From positions 520,117 to 584,116 of the forward strand of contig NZ_LMRT01000013.1 of NCBI RefSeq assembly GCF_001426225.1: a stretch of DNA of 64,000 nucleotides, written 5' to 3'. Every line of letters starts with the position of its first letter. Positions within the stretch are counted from its first letter, which is position 1. Shown in pieces: positions 5,633 through 44,696 of the stretch. The translations under genes were made by a program, and so were the position numbers. This DNA comes from Allobosea sp. Leaf344. Lineage in GTDB: Bacteria > Pseudomonadota > Alphaproteobacteria > Rhizobiales > Beijerinckiaceae. Below the pieces are notes generated by a model. The model did no database searches. It was given only the letters and a program-made list of their open reading frames with translations, and had not been told where the DNA came from.

Positions 5633-7177
5633 ATGACGATCACATCCTATGGGACCGGAGCCTATCGCGCCGCCAGGACCAACGATCTCGTCAGCAATCG
5701 CTCGCAATTCGAGGAGCTGCAGCGCCAGCTCGCGACCAAGAAGCGGAGCGAGACCTTCGGCGATCTCGGCATGGATCGTCGCACCAGCCTCGACGTCGCC
5801 AGCAAGATCTCCTCGATCGACTCCTGGCTGGCGGGCATCCAGCTCGGCAACGTCAATGTCGATCTGCAGACCAAGGCGATCGAGAACTACGCGAAGATGA
5901 CCTCCGAGACGCGCAACGATCTGCGCTCGAACACCTATGTTCCCAGCGCCAGCGGCCGGTCCTCGCCGCAGACGATGGCGGAGGAGAAGTTCAAGCAGAC
6001 GCTGGATCTGCTGAGCACCCAGGTCAATGGCCGCTACCTGTTCTCCGGGCGGACCAGCGACGTGAACCCGGTCGCGAGCTACAGCGAGATCATGAACGGC
6101 GATGCGCCGGGCCGGGCCGGGCTGAGCCAGCTGATCAAGGAGCGCCAGCGCGCCGATCTCGGCACGGCGCCGAACTGGGGCCGCGTCGCCTTCTCGAATA
6201 CAGGGCCGACCAACACGACGATGACCGAGGCCGGCGGCGATTTCGGGCTGAAGCTCACGGCGGCCACCTCATCGAACACGGCGGCGATCGCCGTCGCCCG
6301 CAATGCCGGGCCGCCGGTCAATCTGAGTGTCGACGTCAACGCCCAGCCGCAGCCGGGCGATACGGTGCGGATCAAGCTCGATCTCCCGGACGGCACCCAG
6401 AAGGAGATCGAGCTCACGGCGATCGCGGCCGGCGCCACGCCGCAGCCCGGCAAGACCTTCACGATCGGCGCCGACACCACCGAGACGGCGACCTCGCTGC
6501 GCGATTCGCTGCGCGCCGGGATGAAGAAGGAGGCCGAGACGACGCTGATGTCGGCTTCGGCGATGGCGACGGCGACCGATTTCTTCGCGGCGCCCTCTCC
6601 GGGTGCGGCCCCTGGCGATCCGCCGATCCTGCCCTGGCGGGTGGTCGGGACACCGGAGACGGCGACCACCCGCATCCGCGGCACGGCCGCCGATACGACG
6701 GTCTGGTACCGGGGCGAGCTCGGCGCGGCGAACGACAAGGCGCGCACCACCGCGACCGTCCAGGTCGACAAGGGCCAGGCGGTGGCCGTCGGCGCGCGGG
6801 CCAATGAGAACGCCTTCCAGACCGGGCTCGCCGCCTTCGCCGTCCTGGCGCATGAGAATTTTCCGCAGGCGGATGCGAATTCGCAGACCCGCTACGAGGC
6901 GATGATCGAGCGTGCCCGCGAAAAGCTCGGCTTCGGCGACACCGCGCAGAAGCCGGCCGAGATCATCACCGAGCTCGGCGCCGCCAAGGCCAGCATGGCC
7001 CAGGCCAAGGAGCGCCACACGGCGACGAAGAACCAGCTGACGAGCCTCGCCGATTCCGTCGAGAACGTCACCACGGAAGAGGTGGCGGCGCAGATCCTGG
7101 CGCTGCAGAACACGATGCAGGCGAGCTATCAGGTGACGTCGATCCTGTCGAAGCTGAACCTGACCAATTATCTCTGA
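5633..7177 (+). CDS. flgL: Flagellar hook-associated protein 3 FlgL (flagellin-like)
   Basis: A 514-residue protein with a flagellin-type N-terminal coiled coil (residues 1-130, with stretches such as SQFEELQRQLATKKRSETFG and DVASKISSIDSWLAGIQLGN) and a matching C-terminal helix ending LQNTMQASYQVTSILSKLNL. This is the pattern of FlgL, the junction protein next to the filament. The ATG follows GAGGAG and lies 11 bases after flgK. At 514 residues it is longer than enteric FlgL because of an inserted middle domain (about residues 180-390), as in other alphaproteobacteria. It ends the operon just before a strong terminator. Confidence 0.92.
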   Translation: MTITSYGTGAYRAARTNDLVSNRSQFEELQRQLATKKRSETFGDLGMDRRTSLDVASKISSIDSWLAGIQLGNVNVDLQTKAIENYAKMTSETRNDLRSNTYVPSASGRSSPQTMAEEKFKQTLDLLSTQVNGRYLFSGRTSDVNPVASYSEIMNGDAPGRAGLSQLIKERQRADLGTAPNWGRVAFSNTGPTNTTMTEAGGDFGLKLTAATSSNTAAIAVARNAGPPVNLSVDVNAQPQPGDTVRIKLDLPDGTQKEIELTAIAAGATPQPGKTFTIGADTTETATSLRDSLRAGMKKEAETTLMSASAMATATDFFAAPSPGAAPGDPPILPWRVVGTPETATTRIRGTAADTTVWYRGELGAANDKARTTATVQVDKGQAVAVGARANENAFQTGLAAFAVLAHENFPQADANSQTRYEAMIERAREKLGFGDTAQKPAEIITELGAAKASMAQAKERHTATKNQLTSLADSVENVTTEEVAAQILALQNTMQASYQVTSILSKLNLTNYL

Positions 7178-7195
7178 GCCGGGCCGCGGCTCATG

Positions 7196-7229
7196 AAAAA
7201 GGGCGCCCGCGAGAACGGGCGCCCTTTTT
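7196..7229. terminator. Bidirectional intrinsic terminator between flgL and flaF
   Basis: A perfect inverted repeat: GGGCGCCCG (7201-7209), loop CGAGAA, CGGGCGCCC (7216-7224), flanked by AAAAA on the left and TTTTT on the right. It can terminate both flgL (plus) and flaF (minus), which converge here. Confidence 0.9.
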
Positions 7230-7247
7230 GCGTTCGAGGCAAAGACG

Positions 7248-7619
7248 TCAGCGGCCGCGCAGGCCCGCCGCGATGTCCCGGTTGATGTTGACGAGCACGC
7301 CGAGCTTGGCCGCCGCCGGCTCGGCGGCGACGCGGAAGGTGTGGTTGAAGATGAAATTGGCGAGGCCCAGGATATTGCGCTTGATCTCGACCGGGAGGGG
7401 GTTCTCCTCCTTGATCACGGCCGAGACGAGCAGCGTCCAGAGCTTGCGGTTATAGGTCAGGGCCTCGTCCAGATCCTGCTCGCGGGCGAGCCAGTCGTCG
7501 GCGATCAGCTGCAGCCGGGTCGCGGCCTTGATCAGGAGGGAGGCTTCCAGCTCGCGAGGCGTGTCGATCGCTTGGTTGGAGCGGGCGGCAGAGGCGTAGG
7601 CGTTAAACCCGTGTTGCAT
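7248..7619 (-). CDS. flaF: Flagellar biosynthesis regulator FlaF
   Basis: A 123-residue protein beginning MQHGFNAYASAARSNQAIDT, with the conserved RELEASLLIKAATRLQ and NRKLWTLLVSAV segments of the FlaF family. In Caulobacter and Brucella, FlaF is needed for flagellin secretion or translation and acts opposite to FlbT. Its ATG lies inside the last codons of flbT (17-base overlap), so the two are translationally coupled in a flagellin 1-flbT-flaF cluster. It is cytoplasmic and has no membrane segment. The transcript probably ends at the terminator at 7196. Confidence 0.93.
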   Translation of the reverse strand: MQHGFNAYASAARSNQAIDTPRELEASLLIKAATRLQLIADDWLAREQDLDEALTYNRKLWTLLVSAVIKEENPLPVEIKRNILGLANFIFNHTFRVAAEPAAAKLGVLVNINRDIAAGLRGR

Positions 7620-7995
7620 TCTCGATGAGTTCCGCTTCGTAAGCGATCAGCTTTTTGGCCGCCTTGAGAGCTTTGTACAGATCACCACTTAAGATGCGGT
7701 TATTGATCTCGTGAATATGCGGCATAGCGCTCGGTGCCGCCTGCAGGAAATCCCGCACCAGCTCGAAATAGGTCTGGTGCCCATGCGCCGCATCCTGCGC
7801 GAGATACATCAGCTGGATCGACAGATAGATCTTCTTCGCCGGCGAATCCGCGCTGGTCGCCGTGAGAATGTCCTTCTCGCGCAGGATCGGCGCGTCGCCC
7901 TCGATGAAGAAGCGCGTGCGCTGCTCGTCGTTGCGGATGACGACCTGGCCGATGATGATGCGCTCGCGCGGCTTGAGTTCGACCTTGAGAGCCAT
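7603..7995 (-). CDS. flbT: Flagellin mRNA regulator FlbT
   Basis: A 130-residue protein, MALKVELKPRERIIIGQVVI at the start, with the conserved FFIEGDAPILREKDIL and YLAQDAAHGHQTYFELVRDF blocks of the FlbT family. In Caulobacter, FlbT binds the 5' untranslated region of flagellin mRNA and couples its translation and stability to hook completion. The frame stays open 20 codons further upstream, but the ATG at 7995 fits the family N-terminus and has an SD-like AGAAGG 10 bases upstream. That SD lies inside the same small hairpin (GCC-AGAA-GGC, 8005-8014) found before the flagellins, which suggests autoregulation. It overlaps flaF downstream and follows flagellin 1 by 37 bases. Confidence 0.94.
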   Translation of the reverse strand: MALKVELKPRERIIIGQVVIRNDEQRTRFFIEGDAPILREKDILTATSADSPAKKIYLSIQLMYLAQDAAHGHQTYFELVRDFLQAAPSAMPHIHEINNRILSGDLYKALKAAKKLIAYEAELIENATRV

Positions 7996-8004
7996 GTCGA
8001 TCCT

Positions 8005-8014
8005 GCCTTCTGGC
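8005..8014 (-). promoter_or_regulatory. AGAA mini-hairpin overlapping the flbT Shine-Dalgarno
   Basis: In the mRNA this reads GCC-AGAA-GGC: a 3-bp stem with an AGAA loop, the GG of which forms the 3' end of the SD 10 nt before the flbT ATG. The core is the same as in the flagellin 2, 3, 4 and FlaG-like leaders, with a G-C third pair in place of C-G or U-A. Confidence 0.55.
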
Positions 8015-8032
8015 TGGAGGGGGGTGCTGCCT

Positions 8033-9361
8033 TTACTGGAACAGCCGCAATACACCCTGATCGGCCTGGTTGGCGAGCGAAAGCGCGGTCTGCGACAGCT
8101 GCTGGCGCGTGTTGAGAGCCAGCAGGCTGGCGCCCTCGGCGTTCGAATCGGCCGCGACCAGCGTATCGGCGCCGGTGGTGAGGACGTTGGCGAGTTCCTT
8201 GGTGAAATCCTGCCGGGTCTGGGCGATCGAGAGGTTCGAGCCCAGGGTCGAGGACAGGGATTTGAGCGAGGTGAGCGAGCTCGTCAACGCGGCCGTGGCC
8301 CGGTCGAGGTCGAGATCGTTCTGGAAGTTGAAGAAGCCGGCGAGCTGGGTGTTGGTCGCCAGCGAGATGCCGAGATTATCGGCGCTGAGCGTCGAGCCCT
8401 GGATGTCGAGCTTGGTCTGGTTGGTGCCGGTCTTCTCGTTAAAGATGATCGAGAGACGGTCGCCCTGCAGCAGGTTGATGCCGTTGAAGCTCGCATCCTT
8501 GGCGAGCTGGTCGATCTGCGTGCGCAGGTCGTTGAACTGCTGGATCAGATTGGAGCGGACGGCCGAGGTGATGTTCGAGGAGGTGATGGTCGAGGTGCCG
8601 ACCACGGCGTCGGCGGCGAGGAAGCCGATCGCGGTGTTGCCCGTGCCGGTACCGGCCGCCGTGCGCGCGGCCGCGGCGTCTGCGCCGACGCCATAGCCGA
8701 AATCGACGGTCTCGGAGCCGTTGCCCTTGACGTTGAGCTGGCCCTTCTCGTCGATGAAGGCGGTGGCGAGGCCGGATTTGTTGATCTCGTTGACGAGATC
8801 GCGGACCGTGGCGTTGGCATTGGCGAAATTGGCTTCGTAGGTGACCGAGCCGACGGTGATCGAGATCGCCGATTGCGGGCTGGCGCTGGTGTCGAGGCCG
8901 AGGTCGCCGGGGGTCGAGGCGGTCGCGGCATTGGCGACGGCGTCGGCGCTGGCGAGCTTCTTGTCGAGCGCGATGTCCTTCAGGCTCTTGCTGGTGACCG
9001 CCGCCTCGGCCGCCGTCGCGAGCGCCGTGCCGGCCTTGGTCGGACGGTTCTGAGCCGCATCGGCCTGGGCCTGCTTGACCGTCGACTGCAGGGACTGCAC
9101 CAGCTTGGTGATGCTGTCGATGCCCTTGGACGCCGCCTGGATGGTCTGGATGCCGTTGGAAATGCCGTCCAGCAGCCCGTTCAGCTGCGAGGAGCGGTCG
9201 TTCAGCGCGAGCGAGGTGAAATAATTGACCGGATTGTCGATGGCCGAATTGACCTTGCGGCCGGTCGCCAGGCGGTTCTGGATGACCCCCTGCTGGCTGG
9301 TCGTCTGCTGCAGGGTGAGCAGGTTGTTGCGAACGCCGCTTGATAAAATCGGTCCGGCCAT
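8033..9361 (-). CDS. fliC: Flagellin 1 (divergent leader, next to flbT)
   Basis: A 442-residue flagellin. The N-terminal D0/D1 helices (GVRNNLLTLQQTTSQQGVIQ, then NRLATGRKVNSAIDNPVNYF) and the C-terminal D1/D0 helices (TRQQLSQTALSLANQADQGV) are standard. It is 37 bases upstream of flbT, so flagellin 1, flbT and flaF may share a transcript. Its centre (about residues 90-260) is almost identical to flagellin 2, while its two ends have diverged and end in LRLFQ instead of LRLF. Unlike the other three flagellins it lacks the AGAA hairpin; its SD is AGGGG five bases before ATG. It therefore probably escapes whatever control that element exerts. Confidence 0.96.
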   Translation of the reverse strand: MAGPILSSGVRNNLLTLQQTTSQQGVIQNRLATGRKVNSAIDNPVNYFTSLALNDRSSQLNGLLDGISNGIQTIQAASKGIDSITKLVQSLQSTVKQAQADAAQNRPTKAGTALATAAEAAVTSKSLKDIALDKKLASADAVANAATASTPGDLGLDTSASPQSAISITVGSVTYEANFANANATVRDLVNEINKSGLATAFIDEKGQLNVKGNGSETVDFGYGVGADAAAARTAAGTGTGNTAIGFLAADAVVGTSTITSSNITSAVRSNLIQQFNDLRTQIDQLAKDASFNGINLLQGDRLSIIFNEKTGTNQTKLDIQGSTLSADNLGISLATNTQLAGFFNFQNDLDLDRATAALTSSLTSLKSLSSTLGSNLSIAQTRQDFTKELANVLTTGADTLVAADSNAEGASLLALNTRQQLSQTALSLANQADQGVLRLFQ

Positions 9362-9477
9362 TTCAATCCCCTGACGCGCGAATTCATGTTTGGTCTGTTA
9401 GACTTCAGACAATCATTCCTTCTTAGGGATAATAAACCGTTAACAGCGCAAACTGATTGACGCGATTGCGCTTTCGC

Positions 9478-9510
9478 AAAAAAAGGCGGCCGAGCTTTCG
9501 CCCCGCCGCC
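9478..9510 (-). terminator. Intrinsic terminator of flagellin 2
   Basis: On the minus strand: GGCGGC stem with an inner GGGC-GAAA-GCTC helix, closing GCCGCC, then seven T residues. It lies about 55 bases after the flagellin 2 stop and upstream of flagellin 1, so these two genes are separate transcripts. Confidence 0.88.
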
Positions 9511-9563
9511 ATGGTCTTCGACCACATTCTGTGGTTGCCCCGCTCCTGCGGGACGAAGAAGGA

Positions 9564-10886
9564 TCAGAACAGGCGCAGGATCGCCTGGTCGGCCTGGTTC
9601 GAGAGCGACAGAGCGGTCTGCGACAGCTGCTGGCGGGTCTGGAGGGCCAGCAGGCTGGCGGCCTCCTGGTTGCCATCGGCTGCGACGAGGTTGTCGGCAC
9701 CCTGCGACAGCACGCTGGCCAGATCCTTGGTGAAGTCCTGACGGGTCTGGACCACCGAGAGATTGGCGCCCAGCGACGAGGACAGAGACTTCAGCGAGGT
9801 CAAGGCGCCGGTCAGCGACTTGGTGGCGGCATCCAGATCGGAGTCGTTCTGGAAGTTGAAGAAGCCGGTCAGCTGGGTGTTCGTCGCCTGGGAGATGCCG
9901 AGGTTGTCGGCGCTGAGCGTCGAGCCCTGGATGTCCAGCTTGGACTGGTTCGAGCCGGTTTTCTCGTTGAACTGGATCGAGACCTTGTCGCCCTGCAGCA
10001 GGTTGACGCCGTTGAAGCCAGCATCCTTGGCCAGCTGGTCGATCTGCGTACGCAGGTCGTTGAACTGCTGGATGAGGTTCGAGCGGACGGCGGAGGTCAC
10101 GTTCGACGAGGTGAGCGTCGAGGTGCCGACCGCGGCGTCGGCGGCGAGGAAGCCGATCGCCACGTTGCCCGTGCCGGTGCCGGCCGCCGTGCGAGCGGCA
10201 GCGGCGTCGGTGCCGACGCCGTAACCGAAGTCGACGGTCTCGGAGCCGTTGCCCTTGACGTTGAGCTGGCCCTTCTCGTCGACGAAGGCGGTCGCGAGGC
10301 CGGATTTGTTGATCTCGTTGACGAGATCGCGGACCGTCGCGTTGGCGTTGGCGAAGTTGGCTTCATAGGTGGTGGAGCCGACCGTGATCGAGATCGCGGA
10401 CTGCGGGCTGGCGCTGGTGTCGATGCCGATGTCACCAGGGGTCGAAGCGGTCGCCGCGGTGGCGACGGCGTCGGCGCTGGCGAGCTTCTTGTCGAGCGCG
10501 ATATCCTTCAGGCTCTTGCTGGTGACGGCCGCTTCGGCCGCCGTGGCGAGAGCCGTGCCGGCCTTGGTCGGGCGGTTCTGAGCCGCATCGGCCTGAGCCT
10601 GCTTCACGGTCGACTGCAGCGAAGACACCAGCTTGGTGATGCCGTCGATGCCCTTCGAGGCCGACTGGATGGTCTGGATACCGTTGGAAATGCCGTCGAG
10701 CAGGCCGGTCAGCGCCGAGGAACGCTCGTTCAGCGAGGCGGCCGTGAAGAAGTTCACGGGGCTGTCGATGGCGGAGTTGACGCGCTTGCCGGTGGCGAGA
10801 CGGTTCTGGATGGCGCTCGCCTGGGACTGGACCGACGAGAGCGACGAAACGGCGTTACGAACGCCGGAGGAGAGAGTGACAGCCAT
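9564..10886 (-). CDS. fliC: Flagellin 2
   Basis: A 440-residue flagellin starting MAVTLSSGVRNAVSSLSSVQ with SAIQNRLATGKRVNSAID, and ending SLSNQADQAILRLF, the canonical terminal helices that polymerise in the filament core. It has no cysteine or tryptophan. Residues about 90-260 match flagellin 1 almost residue for residue, whereas the termini differ more; this is the reverse of the usual flagellin pattern. Two AGAA mini-hairpins precede the start (10896 and 10911) and an upstream box TGTCGTGACGTCA ends 65 bases before it. It is followed by its own U-rich terminator, so it is monocistronic. Confidence 0.97.
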   Translation of the reverse strand: MAVTLSSGVRNAVSSLSSVQSQASAIQNRLATGKRVNSAIDSPVNFFTAASLNERSSALTGLLDGISNGIQTIQSASKGIDGITKLVSSLQSTVKQAQADAAQNRPTKAGTALATAAEAAVTSKSLKDIALDKKLASADAVATAATASTPGDIGIDTSASPQSAISITVGSTTYEANFANANATVRDLVNEINKSGLATAFVDEKGQLNVKGNGSETVDFGYGVGTDAAAARTAAGTGTGNVAIGFLAADAAVGTSTLTSSNVTSAVRSNLIQQFNDLRTQIDQLAKDAGFNGVNLLQGDKVSIQFNEKTGSNQSKLDIQGSTLSADNLGISQATNTQLTGFFNFQNDSDLDAATKSLTGALTSLKSLSSSLGANLSVVQTRQDFTKDLASVLSQGADNLVAADGNQEAASLLALQTRQQLSQTALSLSNQADQAILRLF

Positions 10887-10895
10887 TGTATCGAG

Positions 10896-10920
10896 CCCTT
10901 CTGGGAGTGTGCCTTCTGGC
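10896..10920 (-). promoter_or_regulatory. Tandem AGAA mini-hairpins in the flagellin 2 leader
   Basis: Two units: CCC-AGAA-GGG (10896-10905), which overlaps the SD 10 nt before ATG, and GCC-AGAA-GGC (10911-10920) five bases further upstream. The outer pair changes from C-G to G-C while pairing is kept. A third hairpin, AGGCC-AGGAC-GGCCT, lies immediately upstream. Confidence 0.6.
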
Positions 10921-10938
10921 GTCAGGCCGTCCTGGCCT

Positions 10939-10951
10939 TGACGTCACGACA
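10939..10951 (-). promoter_or_regulatory. Flagellin upstream box TGTCGTGACGTCA
   Basis: Reads TGTCGTGACGTCA on the coding strand and ends 65 bases before the flagellin 2 ATG. Equivalent TGTCNNNACGTCA boxes are found at the same distance before flagellins 3 and 4. It may be part of the promoter or a regulator site; the sigma factor is not identifiable. Confidence 0.5.
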
Positions 10952-10987
10952 CTCATCCTCGAGCCCGTAACAATTAGTGAATCGCAG

Positions 10988-11010
10988 CCTTCAGTTTTTA
11001 AGTCTGAAGG
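10988..11010. repeat. Inverted repeat upstream of flagellin 2
   Basis: CCTTCAG (10988-10994) and CTGAAGG (11004-11010) around an A/T-rich 9-base loop, about 100 bases upstream of the flagellin 2 start. It could be an operator or a weak terminator for readthrough from flagellin 3; function unknown. Confidence 0.45.
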
Positions 11011-11093
11011 GGCAATGCTGAGCATAGTTAATCAAACTGAAAATCACGTCTCCATTCTTGTAGTACGCGCTTTCGGTCCGCGGAGAGGGCGAA

Positions 11094-11120
11094 TGCGCCG
11101 GCGATCGTCTCGCCGGCGCA
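11094..11120 (-). terminator. Hairpin terminator after flagellin 3
   Basis: An 11-bp perfect stem TGCGCCGGCGA / TCGCCGGCGCA with a 5-base loop, beginning 13 bases after the flagellin 3 stop. There is no U-tract, so termination may be Rho-assisted or the hairpin may protect the 3' end. Confidence 0.65.
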
Positions 11121-11132
11121 AGCTTCGCAGGA

Positions 11133-12431
11133 TCAGAACAGGCGCAGGATCGCCTGGTCCGCCTGGTTGGACAGGGACAAGGCCTGCTGCGACAGCTGCT
11201 GCCGCGTCTGCAGGGCGAGGAGCTTCGCGGCTTCCTCATTGGTGTCGGCCAGAACCAGATCGTCGGCGCCGGCCTTGAGCGTGCTGATCAGATCCTTGGA
11301 GAAATCCTGGCGGGTCTGGACCACGCCGAGATTGGCACCGAAGGTCGAGGCGGTCGAACGGACCGTGGCCAAGGTCGCGGTCAGGCTGTCGGCGGCCTTG
11401 GCCAGGGCACTGTCGCTCTGGAAGTTGATGTTGAAGGTCTCGGTCTTGTCGGTGGTGGCCTTCTTGATGCCGAGCGTGTCGGAATCGATGCTCTGGCCCT
11501 GGATGTCGAGCTTGTTCTGGTTGTTGCCGGTCTTCTCGTTGAAGACGACCGAGAGCTTGTCGCCGGTAAGCAGGTTGATGCCGTTGAAGCTGGCGTCCTT
11601 GGCGAGCTGGTCGATCTGATTGCGCAGATCGTTGAACTGGCTGACCAGCGCGTTGCGCACGGAGCTGACTTCCGGGTCCTTGCCGGTCTTGGCCAGGGTC
11701 TTGTCGAGCCCGAGCTTGTCGTTGGAGCTCGCGGTGTCGCTCTCGGCGGCGAGCTTGGCGGCGGCCGAATCCGCGCCGGTGCCGATGCCGAAGACCAGCT
11801 TGTCGGAGGTCGAGGTCTTGATGGAGAGCTTGCCGTCATCGCCGACGGAAGCGGTCGCCAGGCCCGATTTGTTGATGGAGTCCACCACGTCCTTGACGGT
11901 CGACGTCGCGCTCAGGCTGGTGTCGGTATAGGTCTTCTCGCCGACCGAAAGCTGCAGGTGATAGGCGGCGGGCCCCATGCCGAGCTGCTGGGCGGTGGTG
12001 GTGGTCGCGGCGCCCGCAGTGCCGCCGAGCTGAGCGGCGAGCGTGACCTCGCGCATCGTCTTGCCGGTCGCCGTGACCGAGGCCGCAGTGCCGATGGACG
12101 CGGAGCTGGTGACGGTCGGGCGGCTGCCGATATCGCCCTGCGCCTGCTTGATCGTCGACTGCGCCGACTGCACCAGCTTGGTGATGGCGTCCAGGCCCTT
12201 CGACGCCGCCTGGATCGTCTTGATGCTGTTGCCGATGCTGTCCAGCAGATTGCCGAACTGCCCGGCGCGGGCCGCCAGCGAGCTCGAGGTGAAGTAGTTC
12301 ACGGCGTTGTCGACCGCCGAATTGACCTTCTTGCCGGAGGCCAGGCGCGCCTGCGCTTCCTGGGCGGCGGAGCCGATGCCGGCGAGAGAGGTGAGGGCGT
12401 TGCGGACGCCGGCCGAAACGGAAATGGACAT
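11133..12431 (-). CDS. fliC: Flagellin 3
   Basis: A 432-residue flagellin (MSISVSAGVRNALTSLAGIG at the start, SLSNQADQAILRLF at the end). It forms a close pair with flagellin 4, sharing long stretches around residues 195-330 such as INKSGLATASVGDDGKLSIK, and differs from the flagellin 1/2 pair in the central domain. Two AGAA mini-hairpins lie in the leader; the proximal one covers the SD. A TGTCGCAACGTCA box ends 64 bases before the ATG. It is followed by a strong hairpin and is probably monocistronic. Confidence 0.97.
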   Translation of the reverse strand: MSISVSAGVRNALTSLAGIGSAAQEAQARLASGKKVNSAVDNAVNYFTSSSLAARAGQFGNLLDSIGNSIKTIQAASKGLDAITKLVQSAQSTIKQAQGDIGSRPTVTSSASIGTAASVTATGKTMREVTLAAQLGGTAGAATTTTAQQLGMGPAAYHLQLSVGEKTYTDTSLSATSTVKDVVDSINKSGLATASVGDDGKLSIKTSTSDKLVFGIGTGADSAAAKLAAESDTASSNDKLGLDKTLAKTGKDPEVSSVRNALVSQFNDLRNQIDQLAKDASFNGINLLTGDKLSVVFNEKTGNNQNKLDIQGQSIDSDTLGIKKATTDKTETFNINFQSDSALAKAADSLTATLATVRSTASTFGANLGVVQTRQDFSKDLISTLKAGADDLVLADTNEEAAKLLALQTRQQLSQQALSLSNQADQAILRLF

Positions 12432-12440
12432 GATCAGGAA

Positions 12441-12482
12441 CCCTTCTGGGATGATGTCGACGACGTCGTTTCCTTCTGGAAA
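12441..12482 (-). promoter_or_regulatory. Tandem AGAA mini-hairpins in the flagellin 3 leader
   Basis: The proximal unit CCC-AGAA-GGG (12441-12450) overlaps the SD. The distal unit TTTCC-AGAA-GGAAA (12469-12482) has a perfect 5-bp stem. The different stem bases at identical loops are compensatory and support a folded RNA element. Confidence 0.62.
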
Positions 12483-12495
12483 TGACGTTGCGACA
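12483..12495 (-). promoter_or_regulatory. Flagellin upstream box TGTCGCAACGTCA
   Basis: The same box as at 10939, ending 64 bases before the flagellin 3 ATG and directly adjoining the distal AGAA hairpin. The identical sequence recurs at 14238-14250 before flagellin 4. Confidence 0.5.
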
Positions 12496-12656
12496 CTGGG
12501 TTCGGTTGTCGCTAAAAATCGTAAATTTCGGAGCTGAGATTATAACTGACGCAGCGGAATTATTGACATGCTTAATCAATGATTAGCGCTCTCGCAGGGG
12601 GGCGGAGGAGGGCAACCGAGATGAGCGGCGGGTCGTCTGGGCGACGATCCGATCGT

Positions 12657-12679
12657 CGCCGGCAGCCGGCGGCTTTTTT
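12657..12679 (+). terminator. Orphan plus-strand intrinsic terminator
   Basis: CGCCGG-CAG-CCGGCG followed by GC and six T residues on the plus strand, inside the 391-base gap between flagellins 3 and 4, where no plus-strand gene is seen. It would end a short transcript antisense to the flagellin 3 upstream region; a TTGACA lies at 12563-12568 but no matching -10 is evident. Confidence 0.5.
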
Positions 12680-12773
12680 CGCAGGGGGAAATTTGTCTCG
12701 GTGCCAGAGGCGCCTGGAGGCGGCGCGTCACCGGAGGGGGTGGGCGGGCCGGCGTTAGGCCGGACAGGCCTGC

Positions 12774-12798
12774 GGCCGGCCGGGGAGGCCGGCCGGCC
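12774..12798 (-). terminator. Hairpin after flagellin 4
   Basis: A perfect 10-bp stem GGCCGGCCGG / CCGGCCGGCC with a 5-base loop, 25 bases downstream of the flagellin 4 stop. There is no U-tract. The rest of the 12432-12822 gap holds the flagellin 3 leader and upstream box, the plus-strand terminator at 12657 and no recognisable gene. Confidence 0.6.
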
Positions 12799-12822
12799 CT
12801 GCTTCGTCGAATGCGGAACGGA

Positions 12823-14121
12823 TCAGGAGAACAGGCGCAGGATCGCCTGGTCGGCCTGGTTGGACAGGGACAAGGCCTGCTGCGACAGCTGCTGCCGCGT
12901 CTGCAGAGCGAGGAGCTTGGCGCCTTCCTCATTGGTGTCGGCCAGCACCAGATCATCGGCACCGGCCTTCAGCCCGCTGATCAGCTCCTTGGAGAAATCC
13001 TGGCGCGTCTGCACCACGCCGAGATTGGCGCCGAAGGTCGAGGCGGTCGAGCGCAGCGTGGCGAGCACCGCCGTCAGGGCGTCGGCCGTCTTGGCGAGCG
13101 AGCTGTCGCTCTGGAAGTTGATGTTGAAGGTCTCGGTCTTGTCGGTGGTGGCCTTCTTGATGCCCAGCGTGTCAGAGTCGATGTTCTGGCCCTGGACATC
13201 GAGCTTGTTCTGGTTGTTGCCGGTCTTCTCGTTGAAGATCACCGAGAGCTTGTCGCCGGTGAGCAGGTTGATGCCGTTATAGCTGGCGTCCTTGGCGAGC
13301 TGGTCGATCTGCGTGCGCAGATCATTGAACTGGCTGACCAGCGCGTTGCGCACGGCGCTGACTTCCGGCTCCTTGCCGGTCTTGGCCAGGGTCTTGTCGA
13401 GCCCGAACTTGTCGTTGGAATTCGCCGTGTCGCTCTCCGCGGCGAGCTTGGCGGCGGCCGAATCCGCGCCGGTGCCGATGCCGAAGGTCAGCTTGTCGGA
13501 GGTCGAGGTCTTGATGGAGAGTTTGCCGTCATCGCCGACGGAAGCGGTCGCCAGGCCCGATTTGTTGATCGAGGCGACGATGTCCTTGATCGTCGCGGAT
13601 TGCGAAAAGTTCTCGGTATAGGTCTTGTCGCCGACCGCGAGGGAAAGAGTGTAGGCAGGCCCGGCGATGCCGAGCTTCTGGTTGGCGGTGGTCGTCGCAT
13701 CGCCCGCGGGACCACCGATTTCGGTCGAAAGCGTCACATCCTTGAGGGATTTGCCGGTCGCGGTGACGGAGTTCGCCGTGCCGATGGCCGCGGCGCCGGT
13801 GACGGCGGGGCGGCTGCCGATATCGCCCTGCGCCTGCTTGATCGTCGACTGGGCCGACTGCACCAGCTTGATGATCGCATCCAGGCCCTTGGAGGCGGTC
13901 TGGATGGTCTTGATCCCGGCTCCGATGCCGTCGAGCAGATTGGTGAAGCTGAGGGCGCGGGAGCGCAGCTGCGCGGAGGTGAAATAGTTGACGGCGTTGT
14001 CGATCGCCGAATTGACCTTCTTGCCGGTCGACAGGCGGTACTGCGATTCCTGCGCGGCGGATCCGATATTCGCGAGAGAGGAGAGGGCGTTGCGGACGCC
14101 GACGGACAGAGATGCGGACAT
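12823..14121 (-). CDS. fliC: Flagellin 4
   Basis: A 432-residue flagellin. The frame is open further upstream, but the ATG at 14121 gives the family start MSASLSVGVRNALSSLANIG and has an SD 10 bases before it. The C-terminus ends SLSNQADQAILRLFS. It is the sister of flagellin 3 and was probably produced by tandem duplication. One AGAA mini-hairpin (14131-14140) covers the SD. At the position where flagellin 3 has its second AGAA unit, flagellin 4 has a different inverted repeat, TTCGGAA-CA-TTCCGAA (14156-14171). Upstream TGTCNNNACGTCA boxes lie at 14174 and 14238. Confidence 0.96.
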   Translation of the reverse strand: MSASLSVGVRNALSSLANIGSAAQESQYRLSTGKKVNSAIDNAVNYFTSAQLRSRALSFTNLLDGIGAGIKTIQTASKGLDAIIKLVQSAQSTIKQAQGDIGSRPAVTGAAAIGTANSVTATGKSLKDVTLSTEIGGPAGDATTTANQKLGIAGPAYTLSLAVGDKTYTENFSQSATIKDIVASINKSGLATASVGDDGKLSIKTSTSDKLTFGIGTGADSAAAKLAAESDTANSNDKFGLDKTLAKTGKEPEVSAVRNALVSQFNDLRTQIDQLAKDASYNGINLLTGDKLSVIFNEKTGNNQNKLDVQGQNIDSDTLGIKKATTDKTETFNINFQSDSSLAKTADALTAVLATLRSTASTFGANLGVVQTRQDFSKELISGLKAGADDLVLADTNEEGAKLLALQTRQQLSQQALSLSNQADQAILRLFS

Positions 14122-14130
14122 GCTCGAAAA

Positions 14131-14140
14131 CCCTTCTGGG
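14131..14140 (-). promoter_or_regulatory. AGAA mini-hairpin in the flagellin 4 leader
   Basis: CCC-AGAA-GGG, 10 nt before the ATG from its conserved GG, exactly as in flagellins 2 and 3. Confidence 0.58.
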
Positions 14141-14155
14141 ACAGCGTCCTTCGAC

Positions 14156-14171
14156 TTCGGAACATTCCGAA
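14156..14171. repeat. Inverted repeat in the flagellin 4 leader
   Basis: TTCGGAA-CA-TTCCGAA, a 7-bp perfect inverted repeat located where flagellin 3 carries its distal AGAA hairpin. It may be a structural equivalent without the conserved loop. Confidence 0.5.
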
Positions 14172-14173
14172 AA

Positions 14174-14186
14174 TGACGTAAGGACA
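14174..14186 (-). promoter_or_regulatory. Flagellin upstream box TGTCCTTACGTCA
   Basis: Ends 65 bases before the flagellin 4 ATG, matching the position of the equivalent boxes at flagellins 2 and 3. A second, more canonical copy (TGTCGCAACGTCA) lies at 14238-14250. Confidence 0.45.
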
Positions 14187-14346
14187 ATTGCAGGGTTTGT
14201 CGAAAAGAATGGTTAACGAGTAAGCATGTTATTGAACTGACGTTGCGACATGTTCGTCATGGTTAACGGGAGGTGACCGGCCCGCAAGCGCCGGAACGCA
14301 AAACGCCCGCACGAGGCGGGCGTCGATCCGTCGTCGAGGAGGGGGC

Positions 14347-14763
14347 TCAGGCCGTCTGGGCGAGATCCGAGGAGGCGCTGGCCTTGCGTTCGAGGGCGCG
14401 CTCCGCCAGCTGCCTGGAGAAGATCCTCAGCTTCAGCAGCGTCTCGTCCGGCAGCTGCGACACGGTCTCACCGGTCTCGGGATCGAGCCGCTCGAGCACC
14501 ACCGTCTGCGTCTCGGGCTCGATGACGAGCCGATCCTTGGCGGTCTGCAGGCGCGATTGCTGATCGCTGGCCGCCCGCTGCTGGGCGCGCTGGTCCTTCT
14601 GCTGGATATCGACGCGGACGGCGTCCCCGGCTTTCAGGGACTGGACGGTCCGGTCCGGCGAGAGCTCGACCGGGACGCTGTTGCGCGTCGCGATGACGTC
14701 GGCGCGGACAACGGCTGGCGTCCCGCTGACCGGCGCACTTCTGTTGGCGCCGCTGAAGTCCAT
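14347..14763 (-). CDS. FlaG-like flagellar protein
   Basis: A 138-residue protein. The ATG at 14763 (MDFSGANRSAPVSGTPAVVR) is preferred over upstream in-frame starts because a GGAG SD lies before it. The C-terminal half holds VIEPETQTVVLERLDPETGE followed by TVSQLPDETLLKL, which resembles the FlaG domain (V-x-D-x-x-T-G-E-V-x-x-Q-I-P). FlaG proteins influence filament length or export in other bacteria. The gene stands between the flagellins and the flgI-flgJ-flgN operon and shares the AGAA mini-hairpin over its SD with the flagellins, which argues for co-regulation. Residues 75-95 are Gln-rich. Family assignment is moderate. Confidence 0.62.
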   Translation of the reverse strand: MDFSGANRSAPVSGTPAVVRADVIATRNSVPVELSPDRTVQSLKAGDAVRVDIQQKDQRAQQRAASDQQSRLQTAKDRLVIEPETQTVVLERLDPETGETVSQLPDETLLKLRIFSRQLAERALERKASASSDLAQTA

Positions 14764-14768
14764 GGCAC

Positions 14769-14782
14769 ACTCCTTCTGGAGT
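14769..14782 (-). promoter_or_regulatory. AGAA mini-hairpin at the FlaG-like start
   Basis: ACTCC-AGAA-GGAGT in the mRNA, a perfect 5-bp stem holding the SD (GGAG), with the conserved GG 8 nt before the ATG. Its third to fifth base pairs differ from all flagellin copies yet remain paired. Confidence 0.58.
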
Positions 14783-14960
14783 TTCGGCCGGCCCGACGGC
14801 CGACGGCCTGCTCGGGGCGGGGAACATACCCCACCTCTACACCTCAAGGTGGCACAGGGATCTGAATTCCCCGTAAGGAAATTAGGTCAATTTTTATAGT
14901 TTATGTGGCAGCCGCCCATTTTGCCGACCAGGCCGCGACGGGGCCAGCCGGCGCGTCCGC

Positions 14961-15449
14961 TCAGAGCTGCCGGGAAATCACCAGCGGGCCGGAATTCGGC
15001 CGGACGAAAGCGCCGGCGCCGACCGTCGCCGTCGGACCATAACCCGCGGCGCGGGACGGGCGGTTGGCGTCGCTCGCCAGTTCGCGGACGATCGTCTCCG
15101 AGACGGCGCGCGCCGTGGCGAGCACCAGCTGGTTGGTCTCGACCAGCCCCTGGAAGCCGCCATGGGCCTCCTTCAGCCGCCTGACCTGGTCCGGAGCGAA
15201 GCGGGCGAGAGCGACGGCGTTGAGCTTCACCTGCTCGACCCCGCGCATATAGATGCCGGCGAGTTCCGCCTTGCGCGGCTCGCGCTGCATCGCCTCGGGC
15301 AGACGCCCGGCGCGGACGAGCTCGGTCTCCTCGCCGATCAGATGCGACAGCGCCGCCAGCGTCTCGAGCACGGCCTCGATCAGCGCGCGCGCCTCGAGGG
15401 CGCTGGCGATGCGCGGCCTCTCGTCGAGAACGCGTTTAGCGACCGACAT
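14961..15449 (-). CDS. FlgN-like flagellar export chaperone
   Basis: A 162-residue, mostly helical protein starting MSVAKRVLDERPRIASALEA. The pattern LSHLIGEETELVRAGRLPEA followed by MQREPRKAELAGIYMRGVEQ resembles the FlgN family (short helices with an E-x-x-L-x-x-G segment and a Lys-rich turn). FlgN proteins are cytoplasmic chaperones for FlgK and FlgL. The start overlaps the end of the flgJ-like gene by 14 bases, so it belongs to the flgI-flgJ-like operon. The C-terminal 30 residues are Gly/Pro-rich. In related alphaproteobacteria the gene at this place is annotated FlbY or FlgN-like; the assignment rests on context plus weak similarity. Confidence 0.6.
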   Translation of the reverse strand: MSVAKRVLDERPRIASALEARALIEAVLETLAALSHLIGEETELVRAGRLPEAMQREPRKAELAGIYMRGVEQVKLNAVALARFAPDQVRRLKEAHGGFQGLVETNQLVLATARAVSETIVRELASDANRPSRAAGYGPTATVGAGAFVRPNSGPLVISRQL

Positions 15450-15795
15450 TCGCAGCTCCCGCAGCCTGTTCCTGGACGCGCAACAGGTCCTGCATGATCT
15501 GGTTCGACAGGCCGACGCCGCCGGCCTTCTGCAGTTGCTGGGCATATTGCTGGGTCAGCTGCGATTTGAAGATGCCGCCGCCGGTCCCGTTCTCGCCGAG
15601 CGGACCTTCGCTGCCTTCGCCGGTGGCGAAGAGATGCTGCGTCATCTGCTCCAGGAACATGGTCTCGAAATCCTCGGCCTGTTGCTTGGCCTTGGCCTTG
15701 GCCGGATCCATCGCGGATTTCACCGCATCGAGCACGGTTCCGGCGGCGCCGAGCGCGAGTTTGGCCGCGGGAGCGGCGAGCAGGGCTGCGGTCAT
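15436..15795 (-). CDS. flgJ: Rod-binding protein, FlgJ N-terminal domain (CheL-like)
   Basis: A 119-residue protein containing AEDFETMFLEQMTQHLF and GGGIFKSQLTQQYAQQL, the rod-binding domain that makes up the N-terminal half of enteric FlgJ. There is no muramidase domain, as is normal in alphaproteobacteria. It caps and scaffolds rod assembly in the periplasm. The ATG at 15795 overlaps the flgI stop by one base (TGATG), a clear sign of translational coupling; a GTG one codon earlier is possible. It sits second in the flgI-flgJ-flgN operon. Confidence 0.88.
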   Translation of the reverse strand: MTAALLAAPAAKLALGAAGTVLDAVKSAMDPAKAKAKQQAEDFETMFLEQMTQHLFATGEGSEGPLGENGTGGGIFKSQLTQQYAQQLQKAGGVGLSNQIMQDLLRVQEQAAGAANVGR

Positions 15796-16928
15796 CACAT
15801 CACCTCGATTTCAGCCTGCAGGGCACCTGCGGACTTGATGGCCTGGAGTATGGAGATCAGGTCGCGCGGACCGATGCCCAGCGCGTTGAGCCCGTCGACG
15901 AGCTCGGCCAGGGTCACGGTGTCGCGCACGAGGGCGAGCTTGTTGCCGCCCTGCGTATCGACCTTCACATTGGTCTGCGGCGTCACCACCGTCCGGCCCT
16001 CGGCCAGCGGGTTGGGCTGGCTGACCTGCGGCTGCTCGCTGATGGTGACGGTGAGGTTGCCCTGCGCCACCGCGACGGTGGAGACGCGGACCTCCTTGCC
16101 CATCACGATGATGCCGGAGCGCTCGTCGATCACGATGCGGGCGAGCTGGTCCGGCTCGATCTTGAGCTGCTCGATATCGGTGAGCATGCGGATCATGTTG
16201 CCCTGGAAGCGCGGCGGGATCTGCAGCACCACGGTCGAGGGATCGGTCGGCTCCGCCGCCTCGCCGCCCAGGAAATCATTGATCGCCGCCGCCATGCGGC
16301 GCGCTGTGGTGAAATCCGGATTGCGCAGCGAGAGGCGCAGCGTCTTCAGCTTGTTCAGGGCGAAGTCGATCTCGCGCTCGACGAGGCCGCCATTGGCGAT
16401 GCGCCCCACGGTGGGGACGCCGCGCGTGATCTTGCTGGCCTCGCCCTCGGCGGAAAAGCCGGCGATCGCCACCGGGCCCTGCGACACCGCATAGACCTCG
16501 CCATCGGCGCCGAGCAGCGGCGTCGCCAGCAGGGTGCCGCCCTGCAGCGATTTCGCGTCGCCGAGCGCGGAAACGGTGACGTCCAGCCGCGTGCCCTGGG
16601 TGGCGAAGGGCGGCAGGTTGGCCGTGACCATCACCGCCGCGACATTGGCCGTGCGCATATTGGCGCCGCGCGTATTGACGCCGAGGCGCTCCAGCATCGC
16701 CTGCAGCGACTGCTTGGTGAAGGGGGCGTTGTTCAGCGTGTCGCCGGTGCCGTTCAGGCCGACGACGATGCCATAGCCCAGGATCTGGTTGGTGCGGACG
16801 CCTTCGACCGAGGCGAGATCCTTGATCCGCGACAGGGCCTCGGCCGGCCCCGATGCGAGGACGGCGCCCAGCGCCAGCAGCGCCGCCAGCGGTCTCAGCA
16901 GGGTCGGGAAGGCGGGCAGGTTGAACAT
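15795..16928 (-). CDS. flgI: Flagellar P-ring protein FlgI
   Basis: A 377-residue protein with an N-terminal signal peptide (hydrophobic residues 8-30, cleavage expected after ASGPAEA) and typical FlgI blocks: SRIKDLASVEGVRTNQILGY, GYGIVVGLNGTGDTLNNAPF and FTKQSLQAMLERLGV. FlgI assembles in the peptidoglycan layer around the rod. Separation of flgI from flgH (47332) is common in this class. It is divergent from fliX; the shared 224-base gap carries the palindrome at 17074 and a CtrA-like box at 17096. Confidence 0.96.
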   Translation of the reverse strand: MFNLPAFPTLLRPLAALLALGAVLASGPAEALSRIKDLASVEGVRTNQILGYGIVVGLNGTGDTLNNAPFTKQSLQAMLERLGVNTRGANMRTANVAAVMVTANLPPFATQGTRLDVTVSALGDAKSLQGGTLLATPLLGADGEVYAVSQGPVAIAGFSAEGEASKITRGVPTVGRIANGGLVEREIDFALNKLKTLRLSLRNPDFTTARRMAAAINDFLGGEAAEPTDPSTVVLQIPPRFQGNMIRMLTDIEQLKIEPDQLARIVIDERSGIIVMGKEVRVSTVAVAQGNLTVTISEQPQVSQPNPLAEGRTVVTPQTNVKVDTQGGNKLALVRDTVTLAELVDGLNALGIGPRDLISILQAIKSAGALQAEIEVM

Positions 16929-44627: not shown

Positions 44628-44696
44628 GGAGCAGCGGGGGCAACCACTGCGCTGGGGAGCGTCGAAGCGGTTGCGGGACAATTCGGGAGACCAGCC

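What the first reader, a model, noticed from the sequence alone, without database searches (positions are those of the whole stretch)
8005..14782. Covarying CC-AGAA-GG mini-hairpin over the Shine-Dalgarno of flagellin, FlaG-like and flbT genes
Seven copies of the core CCAGAAGG occur in the leaders of five genes: flbT (8005), flagellin 2 (10896, 10911), flagellin 3 (12441, 12469), flagellin 4 (14131) and the FlaG-like gene (14769). Each folds into a stem with an AGAA loop. The outer pairs differ yet still pair: CCC/GGG, GCC/GGC, TTTCC/GGAAA, ACTCC/GGAGT. In the proximal copies the conserved GG lies 10, 10, 10, 10 and 8 nt before the ATG, so the SD is both loop and stem. Sequence that changes while pairing is kept indicates an RNA element, not just a ribosome-binding site. 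FlbT is known to bind flagellin mRNA leaders in Caulobacter, and its own gene carries the element. A compact FlbT-responsive RNA motif, with autoregulation of flbT, is a reasonable hypothesis. Flagellin 1 lacks it. The core also appears by chance inside coding sequence (for example 6397, 20162, 20622, 35378), so location and pairing are what matter.
Basis: partly seen in the sequence, partly recalled or inferred. Interest (0 to 1): 0.85.

Follow-up and report, generated by a model that had tools for sequence, protein, structure and literature searches.

The report
Flagellin mRNA hairpins, likely FlbT sites
In Bosea and its relatives, the messages for many flagellins (and in Bosea also those for the regulator FlbT and a FlaG-like protein) carry, just before the coding part, small RNA hairpins that keep one loop and their base pairing while the stem letters change; these are likely the long-missing landing sites of FlbT, which is predicted to hold flagellin production back until the flagellum is ready, much as CsrA does in other bacteria.

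Summary
All seven CCAGAAGG hairpins are where stated, and flagellin 2 has a further one (AGGCC-AGGAC-GGCCU). In Bosea the core lies within 75 nt upstream of flbT in 26 of 33 cases, fla2-type flagellins 33 of 34, the FlaG-like gene 26 of 31, flagellin 1 in 0 of 31. The first pair outside the core pairs in 93 of 101 leader contexts (GC, UA, CG, AU) against 22 of 50 elsewhere; 0 of 500 shuffles reach the covariation score. Outside Bosea the same element recurs with AGAA, AGGA or AGTA loops and stems of up to 10 pairs: AGRA-loop hairpins in 56 of 97 flagellin leaders against 2.9% of other windows. No Rfam match was found in the leaders tested. CsrA is absent (0 of 101 genomes), FlbT present (87 of 101), and in the class the two rarely coexist (5 of 385). 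FlbT's N-terminus resembles CsrA weakly; structure searches did not confirm it. Best reading: FlbT-bound, CsrA-like translational operators, with one flagellin usually exempt. The RNA element is well supported; FlbT as its binder is inferred.

The parts
8001..8018 (-). hairpin in the flbT leader, UCC-A-GCC-AGAA-GGC-A-GGA (core 8006-8013)
   Evidence: exact core in 26 of 33 Bosea-group flbT leaders
10896..10905 (-). flagellin 2 proximal (SD) hairpin CCC-AGAA-GGG
10911..10920 (-). flagellin 2 middle hairpin GCC-AGAA-GGC
   Evidence: orthologues such as GGCC-AGAAC-GGCC
12441..12450 (-). flagellin 3 proximal (SD) hairpin CCC-AGAA-GGG
12463..12488 (-). flagellin 3 distal hairpin ACGUC-A-UUUCC-AGAA-GGAAA-C-GACGU (core 12472-12479)
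14131..14140 (-). flagellin 4 proximal (SD) hairpin CCC-AGAA-GGG
   Evidence: in the minimum-energy fold but not the centroid
14769..14782 (-). FlaG-like gene hairpin ACUCC-AGAA-GGAGU over the SD
   Evidence: exact core in 26 of 31 Bosea-group genes
7603..7995 (-). flbT (130 aa), proposed binder of the hairpins
   Evidence: Pfam PF07378 E 1.7e-41
7248..7619 (-). flaF (123 aa), flagellin chaperone partner
   Evidence: Pfam PF07309
8033..9361 (-). flagellin 1, no hairpin in its leader
   Evidence: 0 of 31 Bosea-group orthologues carry the core
9564..10886 (-). flagellin 2
11133..12431 (-). flagellin 3
12823..14121 (-). flagellin 4 (start at ATG 14121)
14347..14763 (-). FlaG-like gene (138 aa)
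   Evidence: weak Pfam FlaG match, E 0.012, below cut-off

Best explanation
The leaders carry a covarying RNA hairpin whose AGRA loop is likely bound by FlbT, which would hide the Shine-Dalgarno and so repress translation of the flagellins (and, in Bosea, of FlbT itself and a FlaG-like protein) until export begins. Shown here: the hairpins, their pairing, their loop conservation, their position over the SD with one or two more copies upstream in flagellin leaders, their concentration in certain flagellar leaders, and one hairpin-free flagellin in the window and in 18 of 21 non-Bosea two-flagellin clusters. Inferred: FlbT binds the loops; two or three hairpins let an FlbT oligomer bridge sites, as CsrA dimers do; the hairpin-free flagellin serves as the FljJ-like partner of FlbT; its export relieves repression. 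Weakly supported: the FlbT N-terminal domain is a diverged CsrA-type fold that took over CsrA's flagellin operators in lineages that lack CsrA.
For: RNA element: outer pair 1 paired in 93 of 101 distinct leader contexts against 22 of 50 elsewhere in the same loci. Covariation score 0.375 against 0.115 shuffled (0/500 as high), at most 0.097 when slid; cells changed on both sides 66 against 30.0 (0/500). Sense core in 88 of 132 Bosea flagellar leaders, antisense core in 0. Loop starts AGAA 41, AGGA 27, AGTA 8 of 97 non-Bosea leaders against 1.0, 0.9, 0.5 in shuffles. AGRA-hairpin leaders 53 of 87 (Bosea) and 56 of 97 (non-Bosea) against 824 of 28,355 and 453 of 15,458 other windows. Different stems with the same loop: GCGUCUC/GAGGCGU, GAACUC/GAGUUC, CAACC/GGUUG, a 10-pair stem in Microvirga. 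FlbT as binder: flbT in 87 of 101 genus/order genomes, CsrA in 0 of 101; in the class FlbT 135, CsrA 76, both 5 of 385 (26.6 expected, Fisher 4e-10, phylogeny not corrected). Reviews say FlbT binds, or is proposed to bind, flagellin 5' UTRs, mechanism unresolved (PMC4347634, passages; PMC3930126, passages). CsrA link: with 44 CsrA sequences FlbT 2-46 aligns with CsrA 1-50, pairwise E 1-5e-4, 0 of 100 column shuffles as high in four comparisons, local and global, FlbT R39 on CsrA R44; 0 of 92 windows of 15 unrelated families reach the local score. Exempt flagellin: in Bosea other flagellins 43 of 43 with a hairpin, flbT-adjacent ones 12 of 40 (p 5.5e-13); non-Bosea 25 of 36 against 10 of 26 (p 0.02).
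Against: No binding or expression data. Some Bosea stems are only 3 bp before a mismatch, and window energies are close to shuffles. Two of the five covariation measures do not exceed shuffles: pairs with a change on both sides 3 against 3.0, further pair types 12 against 12.9. Outer pair 2 pairs in only 44 of 101. In Bosea other loop starts are enriched too (CGAA 16, TAAC 13, AACA 12 of 87), from other conserved leader sequence. 41 of 97 non-Bosea flagellin leaders lack an AGRA hairpin. In genomes with the second FlbT type the signal is weak: AGRA 11 of 31 and A[ACT]AA 13 of 31 near flbT, but 4 and 1 of 20 elsewhere. FlbT-negative leaders are not free of AGRA loops (14 of 40; AGGA in 10 of 30 CsrA-bearing ones). 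CsrA homology: comparisons with 10 and 24 CsrA sequences were not significant (15 of 200 and 31 of 200 shuffles as high); the local score rests on 15-17 columns, and the CsrA profile reached 19.1 against an unrelated window, near the 21-22 seen with FlbT. Foldseek and VIA-align listed no CsrA for the whole or the N-terminal model; no PDB sequence match. Seven of 33 Bosea flbT leaders lack the exact core (several keep the stem with AGAC, CGAA or GGAA loops). In loci with three or more flagellins the rule of one exempt gene often fails.
Confidence: 0.62

Rival explanations
1. The hairpins are real but act without a dedicated protein: they are intrinsic translation-tuning or mRNA-stability hairpins over the SD.
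For: Proximal copies overlap the SD; predicted folds are moderately stable.
Against: The loop letters are conserved beyond what folding needs (in non-Bosea leaders 53 of 99 AGAA occurrences start a closed loop against 6.8% for all 4-mers) while the stem is free; distal copies do not cover the SD; one paralogue is usually exempt in two-flagellin clusters.
Confidence: 0.15
2. Another trans factor reads the loops: an unknown RNA-binding protein or a small RNA with a CCUUCUGG-like seed.
For: FlbT binding is not shown; Bosea loops are mostly identical within a genome.
Against: AGAA, AGGA and AGTA loops coexist, even within one leader (L139, L162, L163), which suits a tolerant protein better than a fixed seed; CsrA itself is absent.
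Confidence: 0.15
3. Only a strong Shine-Dalgarno shared by recent duplication, with chance pairing.
For: AGAAGG at the right distance in proximal copies.
Against: Distal copies and outer pairing 93 of 101 against 22 of 50 elsewhere, covariation score, recurrence outside Bosea with unrelated stems.
Confidence: 0.03
4. A DNA operator: an imperfect palindrome bound by a dimeric transcription factor.
For: Flanks are inverted repeats.
Against: The asymmetric centre is in the sense orientation only (88 sense, 0 antisense of 132 leaders); flank letters vary so that only pairing is kept; copies lie within about 50 nt of the ATG, the proximal ones over the SD.
Confidence: 0.03

Closest known systems
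CsrA/RsmA binding hairpins in flagellin and other mRNAs (CsrA-FliW-flagellin switch)
   Same: Hairpin with a purine-rich loop over the SD plus upstream copies; flagellin target; partner protein and a flagellin in the circuit. CsrA-bearing, FlbT-less alphas show AGGA-loop hairpins in 10 of 30 flagellin leaders.
   Different: Main loop is AGAA, without GGA; no CsrA gene in 101 genus/order genomes. AGAA-loop hairpins in 42 of 97 non-Bosea FlbT leaders against 2 of 30 CsrA leaders (p 1e-4); AGGA does not differ (29 of 97, 10 of 30, p 0.82).
FlbT control of fljK mRNA in Caulobacter (Anderson and Gober 2000; Ardissone 2020; neither read)
   Same: FlbT present, flagellin leaders are the targets, one specialised flagellin stands apart.
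   Different: No RNA motif is described in the passages read (PMC4347634 lists none and calls the mechanism unresolved). Whether Caulobacter leaders carry the loop was not tested by name; genomes with the second FlbT type show it only weakly.
flg-Rhizobiales RNA (Rfam RF01736)
   Same: Cis-regulatory hairpins of flagellar mRNAs in the same order; a sub-threshold copy is in this window.
   Different: Lies at flgF (44640-44742), 141 positions, GGGA loops; no match in 7000-16000.

Membership tests
CsrA/RsmA target hairpin | GGA in the hairpin loop | tested here: not met
   Seven of the eight window hairpins have AGAA loops; only the distal flagellin-2 copy has AGGAC
CsrA/RsmA target hairpin | a CsrA gene in the genome | tested here: not met
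   PF02599 in 0 of 101 genomes, own included
CsrA/RsmA target hairpin | site over the SD with a second site nearby upstream | tested here: met
   flagellin 2 and 3 leaders; non-Bosea 23 of 70 leaders with hairpins at two or more places. Not met for flbT, flagellin 4 and FlaG-like, which have one exact copy each
CsrA protein family (for FlbT) | match to the Pfam CsrA model | tested here: not met
   FlbT matches only PF07378 at E up to 1
CsrA protein family (for FlbT) | profile similarity over the whole CsrA length | tested here: inconclusive
   Above all controls with 44 CsrA sequences but not with 10 or 24
CsrA protein family (for FlbT) | CsrA fold | tested here: inconclusive
   Whole model: five strands then a helix bundle; N-terminal model alone: four strands; CsrA not among PDB matches
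flg-Rhizobiales RNA RF01736 | match to the covariance model at the hairpins | tested here: not met
   No RF01736 match in window 7000-16000 at E up to 10
FlbT-controlled flagellin leader | flbT in the genome and an element in flagellin leaders | tested here: met
FlbT-controlled flagellin leader | FlbT binds the leader and lowers its translation or stability | not testable with these tools
   needs protein-RNA binding and reporter assays

The most novel reading that the evidence does not exclude
FlbT is a diverged CsrA that replaced CsrA in flagellated Hyphomicrobiales and inherited its flagellin operators, shifting the loop code from AGGA to AGAA/AGGA/AGTA. The result is an alphaproteobacterial twin of the CsrA-FliW-flagellin switch, FlbT-FlaF-flagellin, in which a cluster keeps one flagellin free of the operator to report export, even though flagellin coding sequences keep being homogenised between paralogues.
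Probability: 0.42. Interest if true: 0.88.

Novelty: new variant of a known kind. Interest (0 to 1): 0.78.

Why it matters
FlbT has been reported since 2000 to act on flagellin mRNA leaders, yet a 2015 review leaves its recognition element blank and its mechanism unresolved (PMC4347634, passages). A compact, covarying hairpin with a fixed loop, found in many relatives, gives a concrete site to test with a gel shift and two reporter mutants. It also suggests why CsrA and FlbT rarely coexist in the class and gives a sequence test for which flagellins are under feedback and which one may be the sensor.

Tried and rejected
Rfam: no family at the hairpins in the window or, at gathering thresholds, in five loci of relatives (L139, L173, L178, L180, L181). 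One non-Bosea leader gave only sub-threshold matches, best SorY E 0.0012 at 26.9 against 111 bits. Wider regulon: all 45 own-genome places with CCAGAAGG 4-11 nt before an ATG were looked at (30, 15); the reversed control pattern had 10. Besides the five flagellar starts only L003, L268, L271 (motB) and L272 look like possible real starts. The motB copy is not conserved: 1 of 22, the own gene itself, among 30 loci of which 8 gave no start. Tandem copies in the genus: of 16 with 7-nt spacing in the 30 fetched loci, 13 precede a flagellin start by a simple motif test; most matches beyond these loci were not examined.

A clean negative control was not obtained. FlbT-negative flagellin leaders show AGRA loops in 14 of 40: 11 of 30 CsrA-bearing and 3 of 10 with neither regulator. 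I read the CsrA ones after the fact as CsrA operators; that was not predicted beforehand. The second FlbT type (A-rich loops) looked promising in 31 leaders but failed in 20 more; I do not claim it.

The idea that hairpin-free flagellins form one FljJ-like clade across genera is rejected: on a tree of 102 flagellins the label needs 31 changes against 31.4 in shuffles. In Bosea the flbT-adjacent flagellins, flagellin 1 among them, do group (8 rows, 95/99 support, 6 without a hairpin). In L096, L162, L167, L175, L177 and L179 the exempt gene is not the flbT-adjacent one.

CsrA homology: tries with 10 and 24 CsrA sequences failed (the script missed the 20 alphaproteobacterial CsrA genes just fetched). 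Adding those 20 gave the positive result. This is a later try and should be weighed so. The structure searches did not list CsrA.

Rows dropped or moved: eight loci (L066, L070, L075, L081, L083, L089, L096, L099) were kept out of the Bosea counts because their FlbT and leaders are diverged; two of them (L070, L096) bear the same-genus label. Their leaders are in the non-Bosea counts, together with 13 class-level leaders; the non-Bosea background uses L138-L181 only. Leaders shorter than 70 nt were left out. Identical leaders were counted once. differ slightly (41 and 42 AGAA, 27 and 29 AGGA) because one search also asks for two GC pairs and a Watson-Crick closing pair. One search's printed list was cut in the middle. 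One search stopped on an error and was redone.

Literature: nine searches listed no paper that I could see describing these hairpins or a FlbT-CsrA homology. Only passages of PMC4347634, PMC3930126, PMC4894983, PMC7591256, PMC2864571 and PMC3765529 were read; the other listed papers were seen as listings. Anderson and Gober 2000, Llewellyn 2005 and Ardissone 2020 were not read, so a site description there cannot be excluded.
Full report
WHAT IS THERE. The window lies in a Bosea-like genome: the nearest named relatives of its FlbT are Bosea. On the minus strand the order of genes is FlaG-like, flagellin 4, 3, 2, 1, flbT, flaF. CCAGAAGG is found seven times in five of these leaders, always sense, and five more times on the other strand. 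The minimum-energy folds of the flbT, flagellin 2, 3, 4 and FlaG-like leaders contain these hairpins and add a third flagellin-2 hairpin, AGGCC-AGGAC-GGCCU (10924-10938). For flagellin 4 the fold is only 12% of the ensemble and the centroid lacks the hairpin; flagellin 1 shows no such hairpin. Energies alone do not distinguish these leaders strongly from shuffles (z -0.3 to -1.8; -1.7 to -3.2 in three relatives). The case therefore rests on comparison.

BOSEA. Stretches of up to 20 kb round FlbT were fetched for 40 genomes; 32 of them plus the window form the Bosea group. Gene order is largely kept. The exact core lies within 75 nt upstream of flbT in 26 of 33, fla2-type flagellins 33 of 34, fla3-type 2 of 2, fla4-type 1 of 1, the FlaG-like gene 26 of 31 and flagellin 1 in 0 of 31. 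Cores sit 7-16 nt before the assigned ATG or 23-44 nt upstream; the latter are too far for Shine-Dalgarno sites of that ATG. Of 101 distinct contexts chosen by the 8-nt core alone, 93 pair at the next position, with GC 48, UA 24, CG 12, AU 8 and UG 1. For the same core elsewhere in the loci it is 22 of 50; at the second outer position leaders pair in only 44 of 101. On 72 distinct 18-nt contexts the covariation score is 0.375, shuffled mean 0.115, 0 of 500 as high; slid structures reach at most 0.097. Two measures, pairs with a change on both sides (3 against 3.0) and further pair types (12 against 12.9), do not exceed shuffles. Where the next letter breaks the pair, the loop often grows by one and the stem re-forms: UACC-AGAAG-GGUA, ACUCC-AGAAG-GGAGU, and likewise UACC-AGGAA-GGUA. 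The core is on the antisense strand in 0 of 132 leaders and on the sense strand in 88.

BEYOND BOSEA. Eighty named FlbT loci were fetched; L102-L137 of them were treated as Bosea. Flagellin leaders outside Bosea often show hairpins near -15 and near -30 to -50, with unrelated stems: GCGUCUC-AGGAA-GAGGCGU (Devosia), GAACUC-AGAAA-GAGUUC, GGUUC-AGGAA-GAACC and AUCCU-AGGAAA-GGGAU in one leader (Tepidicaulis), CAACC-AGAAA-GGUUG (Rhodoplanes), a 10-pair stem UGCUCCGGAC-AGGAA-GUCUGGAGUG (Microvirga). At least one hairpin is found in 44 of 70 distinct leaders, two or more places in 23 of 70 (some single matches there may be chance). Without naming a loop in advance, hairpins of 4 or more pairs begin with AGAA in 41, AGGA in 27 and AGTA in 8 of 97 non-Bosea leaders, against 1.0, 0.9 and 0.5 in shuffles. 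AGRA-loop hairpins occur in 56 of 97 such leaders and 53 of 87 Bosea leaders, against 453 of 15,458 and 824 of 28,355 other 80-nt windows of the loci. The flbT leader hairpin (3 or more pairs) is in 43 of 47 distinct Bosea flbT leaders, 5 of 50 of the non-Bosea set and 10 of 42 of the class set.

WHICH FACTOR. CsrA is not found in any of 101 genus and order genomes, FlbT in 87 of them. In 385 genomes of the class FlbT is in 135, CsrA in 76, both in 5 where 26.6 are expected (Fisher p 4e-10, not corrected for kinship). FlbT is reported, or proposed, to bind flagellin leaders in Caulobacter, with the recognition element blank and the mechanism unresolved (PMC4347634 passages; PMC3930126 passages). 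It is said to interact only with FljJ, one specialised flagellin, with which it represses the other flagellins (PMC7591256 passages, citing Ardissone 2020). FlbT is therefore the best candidate; that it binds these hairpins is inference.

A LINK TO CsrA. FlbT's model has five short strands in residues 2-39 followed by a helix bundle (pLDDT 91); the N-terminal part modelled alone has four. With 44 CsrA sequences, 20 of them alphaproteobacterial, profile alignment is collinear over FlbT 2-46 and CsrA 1-50, with E 1e-4 to 5e-4 and probability 31-53%. No column shuffle of 100 reaches the score in any of four comparisons, local or global, and FlbT R39, nearly invariant, falls on CsrA R44. That R44 is a key RNA contact of CsrA is recalled, not looked up. 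None of 92 windows of 15 unrelated families reaches the local score, best 14.8 against 21.0 and 22.2; but that score rests on 15-17 columns, and the CsrA profile itself reached 19.1 with an unrelated window. With fewer CsrA sequences the result was not significant, and structure searches with the whole model and the N-terminal part listed no CsrA. CsrA-bearing, FlbT-less genomes carry AGGA-loop hairpins in 10 of 30 flagellin leaders and AGAA loops in 2 of 30, against 29 and 42 of 97 in non-Bosea FlbT genomes. The AGAA difference is significant (p 1e-4), the AGGA one is not (p 0.82). An analogy between CsrA-FliW and FlaF-FlbT was already suggested in print (PMC4894983 passage); homology was not found in the searches made.

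ONE EXEMPT FLAGELLIN. In Bosea the flagellins not next to flbT carry a hairpin in 43 of 43, the flbT-adjacent ones in 12 of 40 by the looser criterion and flagellin 1 in 0 of 31 by the exact core. Outside Bosea the figures are 25 of 36 and 10 of 26 (p 0.02), and 18 of 21 two-flagellin loci have exactly one hairpin leader (binomial 7e-4 at one half), though in six of the 18 it is the flbT-adjacent gene that carries it. Loci with three or more flagellins are mixed. On the flagellin tree the label is unclustered, 31 changes against 31.4 shuffled. Outside Bosea, paralogues of a locus are often sisters while their leaders differ, which points to homogenised coding sequences under fixed leaders; in Bosea the flbT-adjacent flagellins form a group of their own. 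This fits a sensor flagellin that must escape repression, but that role is inferred.

MECHANISM PROPOSED. Before export begins, the exempt flagellin would keep FlbT active; after hook completion its export would release the block. FlbT, likely as an oligomer, would grip the SD hairpin and, where present, an upstream hairpin of flagellins 2-4 and the FlaG-like mRNA, blocking initiation or speeding decay, and in Bosea also damp its own mRNA. FlaF would counter this by chaperoning flagellin to export. The RNA facts are shown; every protein step is inferred.

LIMITS. No binding or expression data. Covariation counts treat related sequences as separate, though control (b) and the unrelated stems across genera ease this. 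Start codons were assigned by homology. The decisive primary papers could not be read. On checking I corrected several figures and added contrary results; none of them moved the odds, which already allowed for the weak CsrA link and the imperfect negative control.

Noticed in passing
window 44640-44742 (+): flg-Rhizobiales RNA (RF01736), 49.1 bits, below the gathering score of 55; it overlaps the start of flgF (GTG 44697). Its hairpins have GGGA loops, so a shared binder with the AGRA hairpins is worth a thought.
   Followed up: partly
L271 (own genome, contig C13 near 589600): The motB start carries GCCAGAAGGC, but it is the only one of 22 Bosea motB leaders examined that does; many others have CCAGTAGG or CCAGCAGG there.
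   Followed up: yes
L206-L245 flagellin leaders: Genomes with the second FlbT type (NGAV motif) show hairpins with AAAA, ACAA or ATAA loops near flbT (13 of 31 leaders), but only 1 of 20 further leaders does; a possible second loop code.
   Followed up: partly
L352, L355, L357, L362, L363, L370, L375: FlbT-less, CsrA-bearing alphaproteobacteria carry AGGA-loop hairpins in flagellin leaders, which look like CsrA operators.
   Followed up: partly
L067, L071, L091, L094 flagellin 1 leaders: Flagellin 1 leaders have a different possible long stem, CCCCTGAA...TTCAGGGG, enclosing a GC-rich hairpin and covering the SD.
   Followed up: no
L138:2882 and L146:2467: Alsobacter has a second flaF-like gene before its flagellins, with an AGAA hairpin-like leader of its own.
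   Followed up: no
window 14156-14171 (-): Palindrome TTCGGAA-TG-TTCCGAA directly upstream of the flagellin 4 hairpin, where other flagellins have a distal AGAA copy.
   Followed up: no
L158, L160, L164, L181 and other non-Bosea flagellin loci: Flagellin paralogues of one locus are often each other's closest relatives while their leaders differ, which suggests gene conversion of the coding parts (tree).
   Followed up: partly
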